A stretch of 64,000 nucleotides of DNA from Verrucomicrobiia bacterium (lineage in GTDB: Bacteria > Verrucomicrobiota > Verrucomicrobiia > Verrucomicrobiales > Akkermansiaceae), in assembly GCA_030432565.1 (NCBI GenBank), contig JAUIGV010000028.1, forward strand, positions 1 to 64,000, read 5' to 3'. Made by a program: the position numbers and the translations under genes. The notes beneath the pieces were generated by a model. The model saw nothing but the letters and a program-made list of their open reading frames with translations. It ran no database searches and was not told the DNA's origin. Shown here piece by piece: positions 42,781 through 52,735 of this stretch. Positions within the stretch are counted from its first letter, which is position 1. Each line of letters opens with the position of its first letter.

Positions 42781-44361
42781 TCAAAGATCGCCAAAGCTCA
42801 ACCCAAACTTTGCCAGGAACTTCCGCACGCGATCAGAGTCATTCGGATTTGCCTTCTTCTTGCGCGACTCTGAGAACAACTTACGCCCGGCCTCGCTAAG
42901 CGTCTTAGATTCCCTGCACACTTTCACCACGTGCGCCAACTGCACCCGATCAAAGGAATCGATTTCTCCCTCAATCAAATCACCCACCCCATCGTCTTGC
43001 CGTCCCCGATCCCAGGATTTCTCAAGTCGTACAACTTCCGCCTCCACCTGCGCCACCTGAATCCTCCCCCTCGGAGCCAGCGTCCCCATCCGCACCATGG
43101 CGGCATTCAAATCACGAAAGTTTCCCCGCCATTCGGTCGCCGGATCCTCCGCAAATTTCAGAAACCTCTCGCGAGCCTCCTTGTTAAAGCTCACCGCCTC
43201 TCCCTCTTTCTCCGCAAACCTTTCGAGTTCATAGTCGAGATTCGGCTCCAGATCTTCCCGCCTGTCCTTCAACCCCGGAAGTTCAAATGTCCAAAGATTG
43301 ATTCGCGCCAGGAGATCCTCCCGAAAGCCTCCCTCCGCTGCCTCCATTCTCAGATCCCGGTTTGTTCCCGCGATCAATTGAAACTTGCTCTTTACCGGCG
43401 TGTCGCTTCCAACCGGAAGAAAAGTCCCTTCCTCCAAAGCCCGCAGCAGCATCGCCTGCTCGTCCATCCCCAGCTCACCAATTTCATCAAGAAATAAGAT
43501 TCCTTTGTGGGCCTGACGCAACACCCCGGGTCGATCACTCGCCGCTCCGGTGAAAGCCCCCTTCTTATGCCCGAACAAGGTGCTCATTGCGGTATCCCCC
43601 CGCAAGGTCGCACAGTTGATCTCCACAAAATCCCCCTCCATCGAAGTACGAGAGTCTCTTAACTCATAGATTCTTCGTGCCAAATGTGACTTTCCCGCCC
43701 CCGTTGGTCCGGTCAGCAAGACCGGAGCAGTCGACCGCAAAGCGACAACCTCCAGCTCTTCGATCAGTCGATTGAACGCCGCGTTCTTCGTCGCAATCCC
43801 CGACCTTAGAAAATCCCGCGCTTCCACCTGCTCCTTCGCAAATCTCGTCGCAAGCCGGTCATACTTCGAAAGATCCAAATCGATGACCTCAACCACGCCC
43901 GCCCCCGGATGCTTCATTGCCTTCCGGCCTCGTGGCGGTCCCGTTTGGATCAACTTCCCTGGCAGGAACCGGGCCTCCACCATCAAGAAGAGACAAATCT
44001 GAGCCACGTGTGTTCCCGTGGTCATGTGAGCGAAATAATTTTCCCGCTCAGGATCAAAGGGGTACTCCCGGCACAAATCCGCCAACAGCTCATAAATCTC
44101 CTGAAAGTCCCATGGATCCCTCATCGTCACCACCCGGTCAACCACCTCGGTCTCAGGAGAAACCTGCCCGATATCCTCCTTCACCCGCTTCACCAGCGTC
44201 TTAAAATTCTTCTGCTGAATCAGCTCGATCCGATCCACCACGAAATCCTCCTGCTGACACAATGAAATAGTCGGTCGCCACTTTTCCCAGCGCCGATGAT
44301 CAAAGCCCCGGTCCAAATTCGTGCCTAGAAAGCTAAAAATCACATTCCTTTTCTGATTCAT
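42781..44361 (-). CDS. rtcR: RtcR, sigma-54-dependent activator of RNA repair
   Basis: The 526-aa protein starts with an RtcR-type CARF domain (about 1-180; NVIFSFLGTNLDRGFDHRRW, YFAHMTTGTHVAQICLFLMVEARFLPGKLIQTGP). It continues with a AAA+ activator domain: Walker A GPTGAGKS, the sigma-54-contacting GAFTGA, LFLDEIGELG and NWRGNFRDLNAAM-like sensor region. A C-terminal helix-turn-helix region follows (KTLSEAGRKLFSESRKKKANPNDSDRVRKFL). In enteric bacteria RtcR activates the rsr/rtcBA operon, and its CARF domain responds to 5'-hydroxyl/2',3'-cyclic-phosphate tRNA fragments. It is transcribed divergently from rsr across a 161-bp gap that holds a sigma-54 promoter, so the same control is expected here. 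Confidence 0.94.
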   Translation of the reverse strand: MNQKRNVIFSFLGTNLDRGFDHRRWEKWRPTISLCQQEDFVVDRIELIQQKNFKTLVKRVKEDIGQVSPETEVVDRVVTMRDPWDFQEIYELLADLCREYPFDPERENYFAHMTTGTHVAQICLFLMVEARFLPGKLIQTGPPRGRKAMKHPGAGVVEVIDLDLSKYDRLATRFAKEQVEARDFLRSGIATKNAAFNRLIEELEVVALRSTAPVLLTGPTGAGKSHLARRIYELRDSRTSMEGDFVEINCATLRGDTAMSTLFGHKKGAFTGAASDRPGVLRQAHKGILFLDEIGELGMDEQAMLLRALEEGTFLPVGSDTPVKSKFQLIAGTNRDLRMEAAEGGFREDLLARINLWTFELPGLKDRREDLEPNLDYELERFAEKEGEAVSFNKEARERFLKFAEDPATEWRGNFRDLNAAMVRMGTLAPRGRIQVAQVEAEVVRLEKSWDRGRQDDGVGDLIEGEIDSFDRVQLAHVVKVCRESKTLSEAGRKLFSESRKKKANPNDSDRVRKFLAKFGLSFGDL

Positions 44362-44475
44362 TTGGATATTTTCTTATTTATTTGGATCTTATTATTTCTA
44401 TTTAGACAATGCCACAGAATAAGGAGAAACTCTTAACACACTGATTTTCAGTATCTATTGCATTCGTTTGGACAC

Positions 44476-44492
44476 TTGGCACATCCGATGCA
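44476..44492 (+). promoter_or_regulatory. Sigma-54 (-24/-12) promoter of the RNA-repair operon, with candidate upstream sites
   Basis: TTGGCACATCCGATGCA contains the invariant GG and GC with 12-bp spacing and fits TGGCAC-N5-TTGCA with one mismatch. Transcription would begin near 44503, about 20 bases before the rsr start. Two direct repeats TTTGGATATT (44361-44370) and TTTGGATCTT (44381-44390), spaced 20 bp and about 90-115 bases upstream, are candidate RtcR-binding sites; their role is an inference from position. The pairing of a sigma-54 element with a divergent sigma-54 activator gene strongly supports the promoter. Confidence 0.85.
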
Positions 44493-44522
44493 ACTAGATC
44501 TTCCAACAACTCAAACCAACTT

Positions 44523-46118
44523 ATGGCAAATCGTTCTCTCTTCACCTCCTTCCTCGGAAAAAACGTCCCAAAGGCCAACACCGTGAACAACGCCGGAGGC
44601 CTCGCCTACGCTCTCTCCGCAGAGGCCGCTCTTGCCCAGTATGCCGCCACCGGTTGCATGAATGGAACCTACTACGCCTCGGCCGAAAATCAGCTTGATG
44701 ACCTTCTTAAGCTCACTGCCCGGGTCAACGACCGTTTCATTGCGCGGACCGCGGTCTACTGCCGCGAGAAAGGATTCATGAAAGACGTTCCCGCGTTCCT
44801 TTGCGCCGTCCTCGCCAACCGTGACGTCGAATTACTCGCTGAAATCTTCCCCCGCGTCATCGACAACGGCAAGATGCTCCGAAACTTCGTTCAGATCCTC
44901 CGCTCCGGACTGACCGGGCGCAAGTCCCTCGGATCGGCTCCCAAGCGCCTCGTCCGACAGTGGCTCGACCGCGCGAGCGATCGACAACTCCTCTCCGCCT
45001 CGGTGGGTCAGTCCCCTTCGCTCGCCGACGTCGTCAAGATGGTTCACCCCAAGCCTGACAACGCGAAGCGCGAGGCCTTTTACGCCTGGTTGATCGGCAA
45101 GTCGTTTGATCTCGAAACCCTCCCCTCTCCCTTGCAAGAGTATGAAGCCTGGAAACTCACCAAGATTGGCCCCGTGCCCGACGTGCCTTTCCAAATGCTC
45201 ACTGCTCTTGATCTTGGACGAAAGGAATGGACCGCGATCGCCCGCAATGCCCCCTGGCAGATGACCCGGATGAATCTCAATACCTTCGCCCGCCACGGCG
45301 TGTTCAGGGAAAAGGGACTCGACGAAATCATCGCGAAGCGGCTCACCGACCGCGCCCCCATCAAGCGCTCACGGGTGTTTCCCTACCAGCTCCTCGCCGC
45401 TTATCTCAACGCCGGTGCCGACGTCCCAAAACGGGTGACCAACGCCCTGCAGACTGCGCTCGAGATTGCCACGGAAAACATCCCCAAAGTGCCTGGTCGT
45501 GTCGTGATCTGCCCTGACGTTTCCGGCTCCATGCATCAGGCCGTCACCGGAAACCGAAAAGGGTCCACCAGTAAGGTTCGTTGTCTCGATGTCGCCGCCC
45601 TTATTGCGGCTGCCATCCTGCGAAAGAACCCCGAGGCCCTTGTCCTGCCCTTCATGAATGATGTCGTCAAAGTGAATCTCAACCCACACGACTCCATCAT
45701 GACGAATGCGCAGAAACTCGCCAGCCTCCCCGCCGGTGGAACCAACTGCAGCGCTCCTCTCACCTGGTTGAACAAGCATCGTAGCAAGGCCGACTTCGTA
45801 TTCTTTGTCTCCGACAACGAATCATGGATCGACTCCCCCAACTACGGTTGGTGCGGCGGCGGAAAGACTCAAACCATGAAAGAGTGGCAGCAGATCAAGC
45901 GACGTTCGCCCAAAGCCAAAATGGCGTGTTTGGACATCCAGCCCAACGCCTCATCCCAAGCCATCGAACGCGAGGACATCATGAATATCGGAGGCTTCTC
46001 CGACCAGGTGTTTGAGATCGTCTCACGCTTCACCAAAGGGGAACTCGATGACGACCACCTCGTCGGAGAAATCAAAAAGATCGAGCTCCGGACTCCTTCA
46101 ACATCTCTAACCGCATAA
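44523..46118 (+). CDS. rsr: Ro60 / TROVE-domain RNA-binding protein (Rsr)
   Basis: The 531-aa protein is a bacterial Ro orthologue. The N-terminal HEAT-like TROVE ring (about 1-340) includes LDDLLKLTARVNDRFIARTAVYCREKGFMKD and GLTGRKSLGSAPKRLVRQWL. The C-terminal von Willebrand factor A domain has the MIDAS motif CPDVSGSMHQ near 340 and LPAGGTNCSAPLTWL. Ro proteins bind misfolded RNAs through the central hole and Y RNAs on the outer surface, and with PNPase help degrade or quality-control structured RNA. It is the first gene after the sigma-54 promoter and directly precedes four Y RNA genes and rtcB, as in the Salmonella rsr-yrlBA-rtcBA operon. Confidence 0.95.
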   Translation: MANRSLFTSFLGKNVPKANTVNNAGGLAYALSAEAALAQYAATGCMNGTYYASAENQLDDLLKLTARVNDRFIARTAVYCREKGFMKDVPAFLCAVLANRDVELLAEIFPRVIDNGKMLRNFVQILRSGLTGRKSLGSAPKRLVRQWLDRASDRQLLSASVGQSPSLADVVKMVHPKPDNAKREAFYAWLIGKSFDLETLPSPLQEYEAWKLTKIGPVPDVPFQMLTALDLGRKEWTAIARNAPWQMTRMNLNTFARHGVFREKGLDEIIAKRLTDRAPIKRSRVFPYQLLAAYLNAGADVPKRVTNALQTALEIATENIPKVPGRVVICPDVSGSMHQAVTGNRKGSTSKVRCLDVAALIAAAILRKNPEALVLPFMNDVVKVNLNPHDSIMTNAQKLASLPAGGTNCSAPLTWLNKHRSKADFVFFVSDNESWIDSPNYGWCGGGKTQTMKEWQQIKRRSPKAKMACLDIQPNASSQAIEREDIMNIGGFSDQVFEIVSRFTKGELDDDHLVGEIKKIELRTPSTSLTA

Positions 46119-46126
46119 CCAAAACC

Positions 46127-46147
46127 GGGGCAGCGCCGGGCTGCCCC
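46127..46147 (+). promoter_or_regulatory. GC-rich hairpin after rsr
   Basis: GGGGCAGC (46127-46134) pairs perfectly with GCTGCCCC (46140-46147) around a five-base loop, starting nine bases after the rsr stop. No T-run follows, so it is not a standard terminator. It may protect the rsr mRNA 3' end or be a processing point that releases the Y RNAs from a longer transcript. Confidence 0.5.
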
Positions 46148-46169
46148 CACTCCAACATTAACCCATCTC

Positions 46170-46290
46170 TGGCGAATGCCCGGAAGACTACATTGATAAG
46201 CTATTGGTCGCTGGTTCGAATCCAGCCCCGCCCCGCGGGTAGCTCAGCCTGGTAGAGCAGTAGAAAACGTCTTCCAAATCCTTGTCGCCA
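46170..46290 (+). ncRNA. Y RNA 1 with circularly permuted tRNA-like module
   Basis: The ends pair as TGGCGA (46170-46175) with TCGCCA (46285-46290). An inner stem pairs GGAAGAC (46182-46188) with GTCTTCC (46269-46275). The internal loop holds AATGCCC on one side and AAATCCTTG on the other, the expected Ro-binding region. The apical part is a permuted tRNA: T arm GCTGG-TTCGAAT-CCAGC (46210-46226), acceptor strands CCCGC (46227-46231) and GCGGG (46235-46239) joined by a CCC loop, and D arm GCTC-AGCCTGGTA-GAGC (46242-46258). This matches the known tRNA mimicry of YrlA-type bacterial Y RNAs. There is no anticodon arm, so it is not a tRNA. Confidence 0.85.
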
Positions 46291-46316
46291 ACTCTTCATT
46301 CCAACTCCAACCACTC

Positions 46317-46388
46317 AACGACGAATGCCGTCTGAAACTACATTCCTAACAATGAACACCAACGTTTCAAACACCCCTTGTCGTCGTT
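46317..46388 (+). ncRNA. Y RNA 2, minimal form without tRNA-like module
   Basis: An 8-bp terminal stem pairs AACGACGA (46317-46324) with TCGTCGTT (46381-46388). A second stem pairs TGAAAC (46333-46338) with GTTTCA (46364-46369). The array-wide conserved strings CGAATGCC, ACTACAT and CCTTGTC are present at the same relative places as in the other three copies. The apical loop is only about 25 bases, A/C-rich, with no T-arm or D-arm sequence. At 72 bases it would be a stem-loop Y RNA carrying only the Ro-binding part. Confidence 0.72.
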
Positions 46389-46415
46389 CTCCAACCCAAT
46401 CTTAATAACCTAAAT

Positions 46416-46549
46416 CGGCGAATGCCGGAAAGACTACATGACACGCCAGAGGTCGCGGGTTCAAATCCCGCCTCTGCCATCCCGGATGAGCAAAGTGGAG
46501 CAGCCAGGCAGCTCGTTGGCCCCAATGTCTTTTCAAACCCTTGTCGCCG
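46416..46549 (+). ncRNA. Y RNA 3 with initiator-like permuted tRNA module
   Basis: Terminal stem CGGCGA (46416-46421) with TCGCCG (46544-46549). Inner stem GGAAAGAC (46427-46434) with GTCTTTTC (46527-46534), including one G-U pair. The module has a T arm GCGGG-TTCAAAT-CCCGC (46455-46471) and D arm GAGC-AGCCAGGCA-GCTC (46498-46514). The two are joined by an acceptor-like hairpin (46472-46495) with C-A mismatches and a CAT/ATG tip. The D-arm half resembles that of bacterial initiator tRNA (GTGGAGCAGCC...GCTCG). Conserved CGAATGCC, GACTACAT and CCCTTGTC are shared with the other copies. Confidence 0.82.
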
Positions 46550-46577
46550 TCCTCTTCGAAAAACGAATCCTTTAAAA

Positions 46578-46717
46578 AGTGGCGAATGCCGCCTGAAACT
46601 ACATTTACGATATGCGAGGTCGTCGGTTCGAGTCCGACCCGGGCAACCAAATATGGCCCGGTAGCTCAGTAGGTAGAGCACGAAACGTTTCAGCACTCCT
46701 TGTCACCACTTTTTTCC
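46578..46717 (+). ncRNA. Y RNA 4 with permuted tRNA module retaining CCA; T-run at 3' end
   Basis: Terminal stem AGTGGCGA (46578-46585) with TCACCACT (46703-46710), one mismatch, followed by a T-run (46710-46715) so the stem can also end transcription. Inner stem CTGAAAC (46593-46599) with GTTTCAG (46687-46693). The module is the most tRNA-like of the set: T arm GTCGG-TTCGAGT-CCGAC (46622-46638), 3' acceptor strand CCGGGC (46639-46644) followed by AA and CCA (46647-46649), a short AAATATG linker, 5' acceptor strand GCCCGG (46656-46661), and D arm GCTC-AGTAGGTA-GAGC (46664-46679). The T-half thus precedes the D-half, with a CCA end between them. Confidence 0.87.
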
Positions 46718-46736
46718 TTCGAAAAACAACCCGGAA

Positions 46737-46756
46737 CCGAAAGCAAAAGCTTTCGG
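46737..46756 (+). promoter_or_regulatory. Hairpin in the rtcB leader
   Basis: CCGAAAGC (46737-46744) and GCTTTCGG (46749-46756) form an 8-bp stem with an AAAA loop, 14 bases before the rtcB start codon. No T-run follows on the plus strand. The 14 bases GCTTTCGGCTACCT (46749-46762) recur at 32683-32696 after fbp, so part of this may be a dispersed repeat. A role in rtcB translation or Y RNA processing is possible but unproven. Confidence 0.45.
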
Positions 46757-46770
46757 CTACCTAAAAAATC

Positions 46771-48258
46771 ATGAACTCGAACATCCACATCACCGGTCCT
46801 TCCACCGCCTTCATCCCTGCTCACGACTCCAGGGGAAAGCCCATCACGGTGATCGGTAACGAAGCCATCCGGAAGACTTTTTGCGACACTACAGTGTCTC
46901 AGATTCAAAACTGCAAGTCCGCACCCGGTGTGACCGAGGTTGTCCTCAACCCCGATGCCCACCTCGGATACGGCGCTCCCATCGGATGCGTGATGGCTTC
47001 GCCCACCCACATCTACCCCGGCCCTGTCGGAGTCGACATCAAATGCTCGATGTCTCTCCTCCAGCTCGATGTCGATGATGACGACATCGCCGATCCCCGG
47101 ATTCGACGTGAACTCATCAAGGCCATCTGTGACCGAACTCCCACCGGAGCCGGAAAGGGAACCCGTTCCGTGAAAAAAGGCCGCGAGATCGATGCCGAAC
47201 TCGGCAAGAAGGCCGTGACCCAGGGCGCTTCAAAAGAAGTTTGTGAAGCCCTCGGAATCCCCGTCCACTGGGCGGAACGATGCGAGGACTCCGCGCACTT
47301 CGGACACGACGGATGCGTTTCTACTCTCGAAGAGCGTCTCGCCAAGATGCTCCGCGAGGGCTACGCTGATCGTTTCCTTTCGAAAGCCCAGCAGCTCGGA
47401 TCTTATGGTGGCGGAAACCACTTCGGGGAGGCTGAAAAAGTCACCGTGAAGAAGAACCCCGCCGCCAAGCGCGCTGCCGAAGCCTTCGGTCTCAAGAACG
47501 GTAAGATCGCGTTCCTGTCGCACTGCGGATCGCGTGGACTCGGAAACGACCTGGCCCAGCGTCAGTTCAAATCCCTCGAGGCTCATTTCGAAAAGTGGGG
47601 AATCCCGTATCCCGCCGGAGACAAGAAGCTCGTTTACGCGCCTCTCGGAACTCCCCAGGGAAACGCCTACCTTGATGACATGGCCCTCGGTGCGAACTTC
47701 GCGACGGTGAATCACCTCCTCATCAACCAACTCGTTCTCGAGGCCTTTCAGGAGGTCCTCCCCGGGTGCAAAGGTGAGTTCGTGTATTTCATCAGCCACA
47801 ACATCGCGCGAGAAGAGATTGTCGACGGCATCCCCCAGTGGGTGCACCGAAAAGGCGCAACCCGTGCCTTCCCCGGTGGACATCACGCCCTCAAGGAAAC
47901 GCCGTTTTACAAAACCGGACACCCCATCCTCCTGCCCGGAAATCCCCGTGACGGTTCGGTCGTGATGGCGGCTCTACCCGGAGCAGAAAAATCCTGCTAC
48001 TCCGTGAACCACGGCGCGGGACGAAGCCTCGGCCGAAAAGCCGCGGCCCGAACCCTCGACCAATCGTCCATCGACAAGGAATTCGATCACCACGACATCC
48101 TCTTCAACGGACGAAAGTATCCCATCGACGAAGCCCCCGACGCCTACAAGGATTTCGGACAGGTTCTCGCCAGCGTCGAAGAAGCCGAACTCGCCCATCA
48201 GGTTGCCCACCTTGCCGCCCGATTCGTGATCAAAGACTCTTCGGCACCCAATGATTAA
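46771..48258 (+). CDS. rtcB: RtcB, tRNA-splicing / RNA-repair ligase
   Basis: The 495-aa protein is an RtcB ligase, which joins 2',3'-cyclic-phosphate (3'-phosphate) and 5'-hydroxyl RNA ends with GTP and Mn2+. Metal and guanylate motifs are visible: NPDAHLGYGAPIGCV, GPVGVDIKCSM with the essential Cys, GSYGGGNHFGE, FLSHCGSRGLG, WVHRKGATRAFPG, and the guanylated-His region SVNHGAGRSLGRK near residue 415. The C-terminal block HHDILFNGRKYPIDEAPDAYKD is typical. It is placed immediately after the Y RNA array, as in enteric rsr-Y RNA-rtcB operons, and is likely read from the same sigma-54 transcript when that passes the Y RNAs. Confidence 0.97.
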   Translation: MNSNIHITGPSTAFIPAHDSRGKPITVIGNEAIRKTFCDTTVSQIQNCKSAPGVTEVVLNPDAHLGYGAPIGCVMASPTHIYPGPVGVDIKCSMSLLQLDVDDDDIADPRIRRELIKAICDRTPTGAGKGTRSVKKGREIDAELGKKAVTQGASKEVCEALGIPVHWAERCEDSAHFGHDGCVSTLEERLAKMLREGYADRFLSKAQQLGSYGGGNHFGEAEKVTVKKNPAAKRAAEAFGLKNGKIAFLSHCGSRGLGNDLAQRQFKSLEAHFEKWGIPYPAGDKKLVYAPLGTPQGNAYLDDMALGANFATVNHLLINQLVLEAFQEVLPGCKGEFVYFISHNIAREEIVDGIPQWVHRKGATRAFPGGHHALKETPFYKTGHPILLPGNPRDGSVVMAALPGAEKSCYSVNHGAGRSLGRKAAARTLDQSSIDKEFDHHDILFNGRKYPIDEAPDAYKDFGQVLASVEEAELAHQVAHLAARFVIKDSSAPND

Positions 48259-48836: not shown

Positions 48837-50210
48837 ATGCTCCTCTCCCTCACCAACCACGGCCCCAACGCCTCCGATCTCGGCTACCTTCTCCACAAAC
48901 ACCCCGCCAACGTGCACACCTCGACGCTGGCTTTCGGAGAAGCCACCGTCTTCTACCCGGACTCACCGGAAGAAGAATGCACCGCCGTCCTTCTCGTCGA
49001 AATCAACCCCATCGATCTCGTTCGCTCCAAAGGCGCGCGCCAGGCCAACTGGGCGCTCGGACAATACGTCAACGACCGCCCCTTCGTCGCCTCCTCTTTC
49101 CTCTCCACCGCGATCTCCCGTGTCTTTGGCACCGCCCTCAATGGCACCTGCCAAAAGCACCCGGAACTCGTTGACCAGGAGCTCGACCTCACCGCCCACC
49201 TTCCGGCCTTTCCCGCACCAGGCGGCCAGGCCCAGCTCGAACGCCTTTTCGCACCCCTCGGTTACAAAATCACCTGCCAAGCCACTCCGCTCGATCCCAA
49301 CTTCCCCGACTGGGGTGAGAGCCACTATCACGATCTCACCCTTCGCAAAACCTGCACTCTCCAATCTCTCCTGCAGCACCTCTTTGTCCTCATCCCCGTC
49401 TTCGACCGACAAAAGCACTACTGGGTCGGCCAGGAGGAAATCGAAAAGCTTCTCAGCAAGGGCGAGGACTGGCTTCAAGATCACCCCGAACGCGATTGGA
49501 TCGTGACCCGCTATCTCAAGTTCCAGCGCGGTCTCACCCGTCAAGCCCTCGCCCAACTCGCCCCGGAGACCGACGATTCCGAAGCCGAAGAAGAACCCGA
49601 AGTTGAAAAGAAAATATCCCTCCACTCCCTTCGCCTCGATCGCGTCACCGACATCGTCAAATCCCTCACTCCCGCTTCCGTCCTCGATCTCGGTTGCGGC
49701 GAGGGCAAGCTCCTTTACCGCCTTCTCAAAAATACCTCCATCCCCAAAATCACCGGAATGGACGTCGACTCCCGCTCTCTCGAAATCGCGCAGGAACGCC
49801 TCATCACCCGACCGCGCGGAAAGTACGACAAAAGACTTACTTTAATCCAAGGCTCCCTCATCTATCGTGACGCCCGCCTTGCCGGGCACGACATCGCCAC
49901 GCTCGTCGAAGTCATCGAGCACCTCGACCCACCCCGGCTTGAGGCCCTCTCGCGGGTCGTTTTCGAATGCGCCCGCCCTTCCCACATCATCGTCACCACG
50001 CCCAATATCGAATACAACGTCCTCTTCGAAGGCATGAATCCCGGCCAGCTGCGCCACCGCGACCATCGCTTCGAATGGACCCGCGCCGAATTCGAAACCT
50101 GGGCTCACAAGGTCGCCAAGACCCACAACTACCAAGTCACCTTCGAACCCCTGGGCGAAGAACATCCCGATCACGGAGCTCCCAGTCAAATTGCCCACTT
50201 TTCGCGATGA
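48837..50210 (+). CDS. hen1: Hen1, 3'-terminal RNA ribose 2'-O-methyltransferase
   Basis: The 457-aa protein is bacterial Hen1, which methylates the 2'-OH of the 3' end before Pnkp seals the break, making the repaired site resistant to re-cleavage. The N-terminal domain (about 1-240, MLLSLTNHGPNASDLGYLLHKHP, NDRPFVASSFLSTAISRVFGTA) activates the Pnkp ligase in characterised systems. The C-terminal methyltransferase has the SAM motif SVLDLGCGEGKLLYRL, the metal-binding ExxEH in VEVIEHLDPPRL, and HRDHRFEWTRAEFETW. Length matches clostridial Hen1. Its stop overlaps the pnkp start as ATGA, so production is coupled one to one, as expected for the Pnkp/Hen1 complex. Confidence 0.95.
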   Translation: MLLSLTNHGPNASDLGYLLHKHPANVHTSTLAFGEATVFYPDSPEEECTAVLLVEINPIDLVRSKGARQANWALGQYVNDRPFVASSFLSTAISRVFGTALNGTCQKHPELVDQELDLTAHLPAFPAPGGQAQLERLFAPLGYKITCQATPLDPNFPDWGESHYHDLTLRKTCTLQSLLQHLFVLIPVFDRQKHYWVGQEEIEKLLSKGEDWLQDHPERDWIVTRYLKFQRGLTRQALAQLAPETDDSEAEEEPEVEKKISLHSLRLDRVTDIVKSLTPASVLDLGCGEGKLLYRLLKNTSIPKITGMDVDSRSLEIAQERLITRPRGKYDKRLTLIQGSLIYRDARLAGHDIATLVEVIEHLDPPRLEALSRVVFECARPSHIIVTTPNIEYNVLFEGMNPGQLRHRDHRFEWTRAEFETWAHKVAKTHNYQVTFEPLGEEHPDHGAPSQIAHFSR

Positions 50211-52735
50211 AACTCTCCTTTCCCGAACTCTCGCTCATCCTTCTCATCGGCCCCTCCGGGTCCGGCAAGTCGACCTTTGCCCGGAAGCATTTCCTTCCCA
50301 CCGAAATCGTCTCGTCCGATGTCTGCCGGGGCATTGTCTCGAACGACGAAAACGACCAAAGCGTTTCCGCCGAGGCCTTCGCTCTTCTCGATCACATCAT
50401 CGAGACCCGACTCAAACTCGGGAAACTCACCGTGGTTGACGCCACCAACGTCGATCCCGCCCTCCGAAGAAACCTCATCCAAATCGCCCGCAAGCACCAC
50501 TGCCTGCCGGCCGCCATCGTTTTCAAGATTTCCGCCGGAGTCTGTCACACTCACAACCAAGAGAGAAAAGACCGTGACTTCGGACCACACGTCGTACGAC
50601 GCCAGCTCTCCATCATGAAGCGCGGCCTCAAGGGACTGAAGCGAGAAGGCTTTCGCAAAATCCACACCCTCAATTCGGTGGAAGAAATCGATGCCATCGA
50701 GGGAATCACCCGCGAGCCCCTCTGGAACAACAAGAAGCACATCGAAGGCCCCTTCGACATCATCGGTGATGTTCACGGCTGCTATCCCGAGCTTCTCACC
50801 CTCCTCGATCAGCTCGGCTACGAAGTCAAAGACAACGTGGCCCGCCATCCCGATCGCACTCTCGTTTTCGTCGGCGACCTCATCGACCGTGGACCCGATT
50901 CCCCAAGCGTCCTCCGTCTCGCCATGAAGTCCTGTGCCGCCGGAACCGCCTATTGCGTGCCGGGCAATCATGACGCGAAACTCCTCCGTCATCTCAATGG
51001 CAAGAAAGTAGGACTCACTCACGGACTCGACCTCACCGTTGAGCAGCTTGAAAAAGACCCCATCGACCACCGCGACCTTTGCGACTTCCTCCATGGACTC
51101 GTCTCCCACCTCGTCTTCGATGGTGGCAACCTCGTTGTGGCCCACGCCGGCATCAAAGAGGAAATGATCGGGCGTGGCTCAGGCGCGATTCGCGAAATGT
51201 GCCTCTATGGTGACACCACCGGCGAGAAGGACGAATACGGATTCCCCGTGCGTCTTGATTGGTCGGCTGATTACCGGGGCCGGGCTCTGGTTGTTTACGG
51301 TCACACCCCCGTCGGCGTTCCCCGCTGGCTCAACCGCACCGTCAACATCGATACTGGTTGCGTCTTCGGCGGAGAACTCACCGCACTCCGCTACCCGGAG
51401 AACGAAACCGTTTCAACCCCGGCACTCGAAACTTACCGCGAGTCTCCCAAACCTTTCAAAGCCGATCCCGACGGACTCTCACCCCAGCAACAACTCGACA
51501 CCCTCCTCGAACTCTCAGATGTCACCGGCAGCAGAATCGTTGATACGCGCTACCTTCACAACCTGACCATTCGTGAGGAAAACGCCATCGCCGCACTTGA
51601 GGTCATGAGCCGCTTTGCCGTCGACCCACGATGGCTCATTTACCTTCCTCCCACCATGTCGCCTTGCGCCACCAGTCCGGAAGAAGGTTGGCTTGAGCGT
51701 CCGGAAGAAGCCTTCGCCTACTACCGTGACATCGGACAGTTCCGCCTCATCTGCGAAGAAAAGCACATGGGCTCGCGCGCCAACATCGTCATTGTCAAAG
51801 ATCCGGAGACCGCCCGCACCCGCTTTGGAATCAACGACGGAACCACCGGTGTGATCTACTCGCGAACTGGTCGGCCTTTCTTCAAAGACCAAGCAATCTG
51901 CGACGCCATCCTTACCCGTCTTCGCAACGCACTTGATGACATCAACTTCTGGGAAGATCACCAAACCAAATGGGCCTGCCTGGATTGCGAAATCATGCCC
52001 TGGTCCGCGAAAGCCCGGGATCTCCTCACCGGGCAATATGCTCCTGTCGGAGCTGCCGGAGAACTTTACACTTCGGCTGCCATGGATCTTCTCGGGAAGA
52101 GCAGGCATCCCGAACTGACCGATCTCTCGAGCCGCATTGAGTCCCAACAGGAAAACGTCCGGCGCTTTCGAAAAGCCTATCGTCCTTACTGCTGGGACAC
52201 CCCGGGACTTGATGACTATAAGATCGCACCTTTCCACCTCCTGGCCACCGAGAGTGCCGTCCACACGGATCAAGCCCACACCTGGCACATGGATTTCAAT
52301 GACGCACTCACCAAGGTCGACCCGGCTCTTTTTCAATCCACCAAATCCAAGACGGTTGATCTCAACGATCCAACCACTGTGAATGACGCCATTCATTGGT
52401 GGAAAGAGCTCACCGCAAACGGCGGCGAAGGCATGGTTGTCAAACCGGAACACTTTCTCGTCAAAGCCGAACGCGGCCTCATTCAACCTGCCGTGAAGTG
52501 CCGTGGGAAAGAATACCTCCGCATCATTTATGGCCCCGATTACCTTGAAGCACATCACCTAAAGCGACTTAAACAACGCGGGCTCAGAAAAAAGCAGTCG
52601 CTTGCCATTCGCGAATTTGCGCTTGGACTGGAAGGGCTGCACCGCTTTGTGGAACGAGCCCCGCTCCGCAAAGTTCACGAATGCGTCTTCTCCGTCCTGG
52701 CCCTCGAATCAGAACCCATCGATCCACGCCTCTAA
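50207..52735 (+). CDS. pnkp: Pnkp, polynucleotide kinase-phosphatase-ligase
   Basis: From ATG 50207 the product has 842 residues with the three catalytic modules of bacterial Pnkp. The 5'-kinase has the P-loop GPSGSGKST at residues 15-23. The metallophosphatase shows DIIGDVHGCYPEL near 186, FVGDLIDRGPDS near 222 and VPGNHDAKLL. The C-terminal adenylyltransferase/ligase domain has the lysine motif EEKHMGSRANIV near 518 and later GGEGMVVKP. Together with Hen1 it repairs RNA cut by ribotoxins: it heals 2',3'-cyclic phosphate and 5'-OH ends, then ligates. The coupled start chosen here also aligns with the P-loop position of the clostridial enzyme; longer upstream reading is overlap with hen1. Confidence 0.96.
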   Translation: MKLSFPELSLILLIGPSGSGKSTFARKHFLPTEIVSSDVCRGIVSNDENDQSVSAEAFALLDHIIETRLKLGKLTVVDATNVDPALRRNLIQIARKHHCLPAAIVFKISAGVCHTHNQERKDRDFGPHVVRRQLSIMKRGLKGLKREGFRKIHTLNSVEEIDAIEGITREPLWNNKKHIEGPFDIIGDVHGCYPELLTLLDQLGYEVKDNVARHPDRTLVFVGDLIDRGPDSPSVLRLAMKSCAAGTAYCVPGNHDAKLLRHLNGKKVGLTHGLDLTVEQLEKDPIDHRDLCDFLHGLVSHLVFDGGNLVVAHAGIKEEMIGRGSGAIREMCLYGDTTGEKDEYGFPVRLDWSADYRGRALVVYGHTPVGVPRWLNRTVNIDTGCVFGGELTALRYPENETVSTPALETYRESPKPFKADPDGLSPQQQLDTLLELSDVTGSRIVDTRYLHNLTIREENAIAALEVMSRFAVDPRWLIYLPPTMSPCATSPEEGWLERPEEAFAYYRDIGQFRLICEEKHMGSRANIVIVKDPETARTRFGINDGTTGVIYSRTGRPFFKDQAICDAILTRLRNALDDINFWEDHQTKWACLDCEIMPWSAKARDLLTGQYAPVGAAGELYTSAAMDLLGKSRHPELTDLSSRIESQQENVRRFRKAYRPYCWDTPGLDDYKIAPFHLLATESAVHTDQAHTWHMDFNDALTKVDPALFQSTKSKTVDLNDPTTVNDAIHWWKELTANGGEGMVVKPEHFLVKAERGLIQPAVKCRGKEYLRIIYGPDYLEAHHLKRLKQRGLRKKQSLAIREFALGLEGLHRFVERAPLRKVHECVFSVLALESEPIDPRL

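What the first reader, a model, noticed from the sequence alone, without database searches (positions are those of the whole stretch)
46170..46717. Array of four Y RNAs, three with circularly permuted tRNA-like modules
Four units share CGAATGCC, ACTACAT and CCTTGTC at equivalent places, each enclosed by compensatory terminal and inner stems whose sequences differ but still pair (GGAAGAC/GTCTTCC, TGAAAC/GTTTCA, GGAAAGAC/GTCTTTTC, CTGAAAC/GTTTCAG). Three contain a T arm, closed acceptor stem and D arm in permuted order. YrlA-type tRNA mimicry is known, but a tandem set with three distinct tRNA identities plus a bare form is, as far as I know, unusual. Different modules could let Ro present different substrates or recruit different tRNA-modifying enzymes.
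Basis: partly seen in the sequence, partly recalled or inferred. Interest (0 to 1): 0.95.

Follow-up and report, generated by a model that had tools for sequence, protein, structure and literature searches.

The report
Y RNA array mimicking several tRNAs
Between two genes of a bacterial RNA-repair operon lie four small Y RNA genes that share one predicted protein-binding stem but carry different heads: two shaped like ordinary tRNAs, one with the D arm of the translation-starting tRNA, and one bare, which points to a stress-induced set of tRNA look-alikes.

Summary
Four Y RNA units lie at 46169-46712, between Ro60/Rsr and RtcB, beside RtcR, Hen1 and Pnkp. They share the Y core motifs, and the stems covary. 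U1, U3 and U4 carry permuted T arm, capped acceptor, D arm modules; U2 is bare. Rfam YrlA calls U1 above its cut-off, U4 and U3 below it, U2 not at all.

Two corrections. Tandem Y RNAs are the rule here: 37 of 37 close Ro loci in the order sample have 2-9 units. And 'three distinct tRNA identities' is too strong: U1 and U4 are generic elongator-like. U3 is special: its D arm is that of the genome's own initiator tRNA (19 of 20 bases, A11:U24), although its T arm is closest to tRNA-Thr. A model from relatives finds U3 at 102 bits; its 14 best genomes (7 of them the model's own sources) all keep R11:Y24 while 23 of 34 pairs covary.

Relatives add D-less and leucine-type units in a recurring order. 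Best reading: an RtcR/sigma54-induced set of Ro-bound tRNA mimics that engage tRNA-handling enzymes or tRNA-cleaving toxins. Anatomy is well supported; function is inferred. New variant of a known kind (YrlA).

The parts
42781..44361 (-). RtcR: CARF-type sensor domain plus sigma54 activator domain, divergent from the operon
   Evidence: Pfam RtcR 261.2 bits, Sigma54_activat 167 bits
44477..44491 (+). sigma54-type -24/-12 site, 1 mismatch, first base 46 nt before the Ro start codon
   Evidence: Pattern search (64 matches with up to 2 mismatches in the window, 53.7 expected, so the match alone is weak); best site falls in the same distance range in 30 of 37 loci
44523..46118 (+). Ro60/Rsr (TROVE plus vWA)
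   Evidence: Pfam vWA_Ro60 70.8 bits, TROVE 28 bits
46127..46147 (+). GC-rich hairpin between Ro and the array, also present in sibling L151 with changed loop
   Evidence: (listed there on the minus strand) and L151 sequence; role unknown
46169..46294 (+). U1, YrlA-type Y RNA, elongator-like head: T arm 46210-46226, acceptor hairpin 46227-46239, D arm 46242-46258
   Evidence: RF02553 80.3 bits; arms parsed
46315..46391 (+). U2, bare Y RNA: both core stems, 25-nt insert, no tRNA-like head
   Evidence: Stem scan; fold z -2.19; no Rfam match
46415..46553 (+). U3, initiator-type Y RNA: T arm 46455-46471, acceptor hairpin 46472-46495, D arm 46498-46514 with A11:U24
   Evidence: RF02553 45.6 bits; model R1 102.4 bits, E 1.9e-25; D arm 19 of 20 as own fMet
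46579..46712 (+). U4, YrlA-type Y RNA, elongator-like head: T arm 46622-46638, acceptor hairpin 46639-46661 with ACCA in its cap, D arm 46664-46679
   Evidence: RF02553 63.8 bits; arms parsed; cap
46771..48258 (+). RtcB RNA ligase
   Evidence: Pfam RtcB 335 bits
48837..50210 (+). Hen1 (RNA-repair 3'-end methyltransferase type)
   Evidence: Pfam Hen1_L 345.8 bits plus methyltransferase domain
50207..52735 (+). Pnkp (kinase, phosphatase and ligase domains); start codon inferred from the reading frame
   Evidence: Pfam AAA_33 95.7, Metallophos 57.3, PNKP_ligase 563.9 bits, scanned from 50231

Best explanation
The four units are Y RNA genes in a damage-inducible RNA-repair operon. RtcR, activated by broken tRNA ends, would drive a sigma54 promoter before Ro (inferred from the site and from the Salmonella system). 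The transcript would carry Ro, the Y RNAs and RtcB, perhaps also Hen1 and Pnkp, and the Y RNAs would be cut out and held by Ro through their common stem (inferred). Each has a different head. U1 and U4 present the elbow and acceptor of elongator-type tRNAs, U3 a head with the initiator D arm, U2 nothing. The heads keep the bases for T loop-D loop contact but have no anticodon loop, because the Ro stem takes its place, and no free CCA end. Proteins that grip the tRNA body could bind them, but they could not be cut at the anticodon or used in translation. The most likely role is a set of non-cleavable tRNA mimics that sequester or recruit tRNA-handling enzymes or tRNA-cleaving toxins while RtcB, Hen1 and Pnkp mend real tRNAs; the initiator-type unit would cover the one tRNA class whose D stem differs, and the bare unit would occupy Ro without a head. 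Shown: anatomy, conservation, covariation, origin of the U3 D arm, operon context. Inferred: expression, processing, Ro binding, decoy or adaptor action.
For: Shared covarying core in 37 of 37 close Ro loci of the order. Heads keep T loop TTCRA and D loop GG in U1, U3, U4. U3 D arm equals own fMet in 19 of 20 positions, next tRNA scores 8 against 18; 1 of 37 parsed own tRNAs, fMet, has R11:Y24. Model R1 from seven relatives gives U3 102.4, U1 75.2, U4 63.3 bits. Its 14 best genomes of 260 all have R11:Y24; 23 of 34 pairs have changes on both sides while 11:24 is A:U in 14 of 14. Class order recurs in genus g3. Operon genes by Pfam, sigma54-type sites. PMC7790460 passages: RtcR senses tRNA fragments, YrlA not cut by the nuclease, competitive inhibition suggested.
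Against: The T arm of U3 is closest to tRNA-Thr(ggt) (score 19 of 21), fMet only 14, so U3 is a mosaic, not a whole initiator copy. Its acceptor has no conserved 1:72 mismatch in relatives, and relatives in g3/g4 have a shorter D loop than fMet. The U3 MFE is not the tRNA-like fold. Seven of the 14 best genomes are sources of the model, and the alignment was fitted to it. No expression, processing or binding data. No specific target known; the two PIN-domain genes of this genome are only compatible. Initiator-type units are confined to three genera of one family among what was examined.
Confidence: 0.45

Rival explanations
1. Tether only: the tRNA-like heads all serve to dock the exoribonuclease PNPase on Ro (RYPER). 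Several copies raise dosage, and differences between heads are drift.
For: YrlA is reported to tether Rsr to PNPase through the tRNA-like domain (PMC8394870 passages); a PNPase gene is present; heads turn over between the window and L151 at U1 and U2.
Against: Recurrent class order in g3, constant R11:Y24 with covarying stems, and bare or D-less units in many loci, which such docking would not explain.
Confidence: 0.25
2. Substrate or sponge for tRNA modification enzymes (TruB, Dus): the heads hold or test enzymes acting on the T and D arms.
For: YrlA is reported as a substrate of DusA and TruB (PMC8394870 passages); T and D loops are kept.
Against: Does not explain bare units, or why a D stem of initiator type is kept.
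Confidence: 0.12
3. Scaffold for repair: the heads recruit RtcB, Hen1 and Pnkp to Ro so that damaged tRNAs are handed over.
For: Y RNAs lie between Ro and RtcB; RtcB is found in the fetched flank in 102 of 129 other loci.
Against: Hen1 occurs beside Ro in only 1 and Pnkp in 2 of those 129 loci, so they are not general partners. No binding data.
Confidence: 0.12
4. Artefact: decayed tandem tRNA genes, whose junction reads T arm, acceptor, acceptor, D arm.
For: Many 35-47-bit YrlA matches outside the order look like such junctions (inference, not checked one by one); U4 keeps ACCA in its cap.
Against: No tRNA gene in the window; shared covarying core; conservation in 37 of 37 loci.
Confidence: 0.03

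Closest known systems
YrlA Y RNAs (Rfam RF02553), as in Salmonella rsr-yrlBA-rtcBA
   Same: Core motifs, Ro neighbour, permuted T arm-acceptor-D arm head, RtcR/RtcB context; Rfam consensus has the elongator D arm (PMC7790460 and PMC8394870 passages)
   Different: Four units of three kinds; U3 with initiator D arm; U2 without head; U3 and U4 below and U2 without the Rfam score
Deinococcus Rsr-Y RNA-PNPase complex (RYPER)
   Same: Ro-type protein with Y RNA (PMC8394870 and PMC7790460 passages)
   Different: PNPase docking untested here; class-diverse set of heads
Initiator tRNA-fMet
   Same: D arm 19 of 20 bases, U8-G9, A11:U24, G26
   Different: Permuted, no anticodon, capped acceptor, T arm closest to tRNA-Thr
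Anabaena trn tRNA array and rtcB under one repressor TrcR (PMC10272220, passages)
   Same: Stress-induced RNA ligase together with RNAs meant for the tRNA pool
   Different: Real tRNAs; the terms Ro60 and Y RNA do not occur in that main text; bears on the Acidobacteria loci more than on the window

Membership tests
YrlA (RF02553) | Score at or above the Rfam gathering score of 69 | tested here: not met
   Met by U1 (80.3); not met by U4 (63.8), U3 (45.6), U2 (no match). Only U1 is filed as YrlA by Rfam's rule
YrlA (RF02553) | Core motifs with covarying terminal and inner stems | tested here: met
   All four units; own versus swapped arms
YrlA (RF02553) | tRNA-like head of T arm, acceptor, D arm | tested here: inconclusive
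   Present in U1, U3, U4; absent in U2
Y RNA | Gene beside a Ro60 orthologue | tested here: met
   Ro at 44523-46118
Y RNA | Bound by Ro in the cell | not testable with these tools
   Needs a pull-down
Initiator tRNA | Purine 11:pyrimidine 24 in the D stem | tested here: met
   U3 A11:U24
Initiator tRNA | CAU anticodon and free CCA end | tested here: not met
   No anticodon arm, acceptor capped; U3 is initiator-like in its D arm only
Initiator tRNA | Unpaired 1:72 | tested here: inconclusive
   A possible mismatch in U3, but closed pairs in relatives
RtcR-controlled RNA-repair operon | RtcR and RtcB | tested here: met
   Pfam
RtcR-controlled RNA-repair operon | RtcA cyclase | not tested
   No search for RtcA was made; none of the seven neighbouring proteins scanned is RtcA
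RtcR-controlled RNA-repair operon | sigma54 promoter | tested here: inconclusive
   Site with 1 mismatch; distance clusters in 30 of 37 loci; not shown to be used

The most novel reading that the evidence does not exclude
Ro loci of this kind carry a modular panel of Ro-bound tRNA mimics, one per structural class of tRNA (elongator, initiator, class II leucine type, T arm-only, bare), kept in a recurring order and induced by tRNA damage, so that each class of tRNA-targeting nuclease or tRNA-handling enzyme meets its own non-cleavable mimic.
Probability: 0.3. Interest if true: 0.85.

Novelty: new variant of a known kind. Interest (0 to 1): 0.62.

Why it matters
What the tRNA-like domain of bacterial Y RNAs is for is an open question. 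A natural array in which the Y core is constant and the head varies by tRNA class, including an initiator-type D arm kept in three genera, gives ready-made variants to test it: which protein binds which head, and whether single units can be deleted. It also ties Ro, RtcB, Hen1-Pnkp and, in Acidobacteria, whole tRNA gene arrays to one theme, upkeep of the tRNA pool.

Tried and rejected
Tandem tRNA remnants: rejected by the covarying shared core and by ARAGORN. Protein coding: the antisense ORFs over the array run through the tRNA-like modules and were not followed. Named isotypes for U1 and U4: rejected, matches are shared. A retained 1:72 mismatch as a conserved initiator feature: not supported, relatives pair there. 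A retained CCA in the acceptor cap as a general rule: only a weak excess (22 of 88 caps of 5 nt or more with ACC near the cap start, shuffled mean 11.0, maximum 20), sequences related. Likeness of some Acidobacteria modules to 23S rRNA: no Rfam LSU match at E<=0.5 in L189, L160, L180, left open. Two script calls of R11:Y24 without a T arm (L160, L180) and one with an odd stem (L098/G109) were set aside as not tRNA-like or doubtful. The key YrlA papers (Chen 2014, Wang 2018, Sim and Wolin 2018, Sim 2020) and Burroughs and Aravind 2016 are not held, so novelty against them rests on recall. Six searches of the held library listed no paper on initiator-type or class-diverse Y RNA arrays.

Full report
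WHAT IS THERE. The window holds RtcR (42781-44361, minus), Ro60/Rsr (44523-46118), four Y RNA units (46169-46712), RtcB (46771-48258), Hen1 (48837-50210) and Pnkp (50207-52735). Rfam's YrlA model finds U1 (80.3 bits), U4 (63.8) and U3 (45.6), with a cut-off of 69, and nothing at U2; it reports no fourth place in the genome (150 of 263 candidates scored). The bacterium probably belongs to Verrucomicrobiales: the nearest named locus, L151, an uncultured Verrucomicrobiales MAG, has a Ro 89% identical.

NOT CHANCE. I searched the Ro protein in 189 genomes of the order; 47 match, and 37, own included, have a close Ro (E below 1e-190). I fetched the surroundings of the 36 others. In all 37 a scan for the core motif with both stems finds at least 2 units; 29 have 3 or more, 17 have 4 or more, maximum 9, 134 units in all. 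The counts are lower bounds: some D-less units found by an earlier, laxer sum of stems are missed by the scan. A search in named genomes stopped at 80 Ro loci, of which 75 have units; without 10 duplicate loci, 65 loci have 187 units. Thirteen loci with distant Ro relatives of the order have none. The other strand gives 0 hits in 1.58 Mb, dinucleotide shuffles 5 hits in 1.93 Mb. To avoid circularity I took 201 distinct hits by motif only: their own stem arms pair far better than swapped arms (0.910 versus at most 0.590 in 1000 swaps).

INITIATOR-TYPE UNIT. I compared each module with the genome's own tRNAs. U1 and U4 match several elongator tRNAs about equally. The U3 D arm matches initiator tRNA-fMet in 19 of 20 positions (score 18; next tRNA 8). 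In the 64 kb window the fMet D-arm segment has one place with 1 mismatch (46496) and otherwise none below 6. Of 37 distinct own tRNAs parsed, fMet alone has purine 11:pyrimidine 24. Against a whole initiator copy: the T arm of U3 is closest to tRNA-Thr(ggt) (19 of 21), with fMet at 14. Ten family genomes searched by pattern all have the fMet D arm, whereas their Y RNA copies in genus g3 have a shorter D loop. I built a covariance model from seven initiator-type Y RNAs of other loci (sibling L151 included, window excluded). It gives U3 102.4 bits, U1 75.2, U4 63.3. In 260 genomes of the family 46 match, and loci of 30 of these were examined. The 14 best (93.7 bits or more) all have R11:Y24, 12 by script and G609 and G584 by eye; two of the 14 (G609, G157) have a compensatory change at 13:22. 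Seven of the 14 correspond to the model's own sources; seven, the window among them, do not. In the other 16 examined no clear initiator-type unit was called (one doubtful in G109); 16 matching genomes were not examined. On the 14, 93.9% of pair cells are standard, 23 of 34 pairs have changes on both sides (0 of 500 shuffles reach this), sliding the partner destroys it, and 11:24 is A:U in all. The alignment was fitted to the model and the set chosen by it, so the constancy of 11:24 is partly by selection. The 14 lie in three genera (g1, g3, g4). Among the 80 named loci only L151 and L203, both titled as Verrucomicrobia, have such a unit with a T arm.

OTHER CLASSES. Relatives show bare units (in 28 of 37 order loci and 35 of the 65 named loci), units with a T arm but no D arm, and units with a leucine-type D arm, some with a long variable arm as in class II tRNAs (10 genomes). 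In genus g3 the order bare (2), initiator, elongator, T only, elongator, elongator, Leu type is the same in G143 and G154; G117 and G583 follow it with one more bare unit and one position labelled differently. The sibling L151 keeps U3 and U4 but has a T-only and an elongator unit where the window has an elongator and a bare unit, so heads can be exchanged over short times.

CONTROL AND CONTEXT. A sigma54-type site begins 46 nt before the Ro start. The best such site lies 43-59 nt before Ro with at most 2 mismatches in 30 of 37 loci; 3 more have 1 mismatch further off, 4 have none of note. The site was the best of about 390 positions per locus, so the clustering in distance, not the score, is the evidence. 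No sigma70-type promoter was found in 44300-46900, where shuffles give 1.1. Among 129 other loci, RtcB is found in the fetched flank in 102, RtcR in 93, Hen1 in 1 (L151) and Pnkp in 2 (L151, L222). In 14 of the 116 loci given to ARAGORN, 12 of them Acidobacteria by title or by recalled taxonomy, 5-31 tRNA genes lie in the fetched flank, mostly on the Ro strand (the script printed 117, one more than the loci it was given). A few of those calls are Y units misread as tRNA (for example L160 5094).

HOW IT MAY WORK. [quoted passage not shown] YrlA fragments were not detected, so it is not a substrate of the nuclease, and it is suggested as a competitive inhibitor. From PMC8394870 (passages): YrlA is modified by DusA and TruB and tethers Rsr to PNPase. 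The window adds heads of different tRNA class on one Y core. T loop TTCRA and D loop GG are kept in U1, U3 and U4, so the elbow should form, while the anticodon is replaced by the Ro stem and the acceptor is capped. I favour a set of non-cleavable mimics for enzymes or toxins that bind the tRNA body, with one head for the initiator, which VapC toxins cleave (Winther and Gerdes 2011, seen only as a reference). Two PIN-domain genes exist in this genome, which is compatible but says nothing on their targets. That R11:Y24 marks bacterial initiators in general is recalled; here it was tested on this genome's tRNAs only.

NOVELTY. YrlA Y RNAs with a tRNA-like domain beside Ro and RtcB are known. A class-diverse array with an initiator-type head was in none of the papers listed by six searches, but the main YrlA papers could not be read here.

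Noticed in passing
L160, L168, L171, L177, L178, L180, L181, L190, L191, L199, L206, L207 (Acidobacteria), L197 (Adhaeretor mobilis), L220 (Burkholderiales): Arrays of 5-31 tRNA genes of many isotypes in the flank of Ro and its Y RNAs, mostly on the same strand: an operon-like supply of tRNAs next to Y RNA mimics.
   Followed up: partly
L160 5379, L180 6827, L191 6851, L177 5447, L178 6839, L199 8853, L206 8909, L078 7335, L084 7622: Y RNA units with a recurrent head that does not look like tRNA (stem with GATAAC-like loop, in some CCGGTGATCCTAAGCTGTTCATGCGC); source unknown.
   Followed up: partly
L189 9302-9493: Y RNA-like unit whose insert holds a stretch that reminds me of conserved 23S rRNA (recalled); no Rfam LSU match in that locus.
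   Followed up: partly
L074 7933-8143 (same as L152 9350): Y RNA whose T loop is interrupted by an insert of about 90 nt.
   Followed up: no
window 48837-52735 and L151: Hen1-Pnkp RNA repair genes directly downstream of RtcB; among 129 other Ro loci Hen1 is seen only in L151 and Pnkp in L151 and L222.
   Followed up: partly
window 46127-46147: GC-rich hairpin between the Ro stop codon and U1, present in L151 with a changed loop.
   Followed up: no
L342, L361, L373: Y RNA-like units, some with tRNA-like heads, on contigs of the viral collection.
   Followed up: no
window 46367-46696, minus strand: ORFs antisense to the tRNA-like modules read peptides such as GFEPATS; probably spurious genes.
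   Followed up: no
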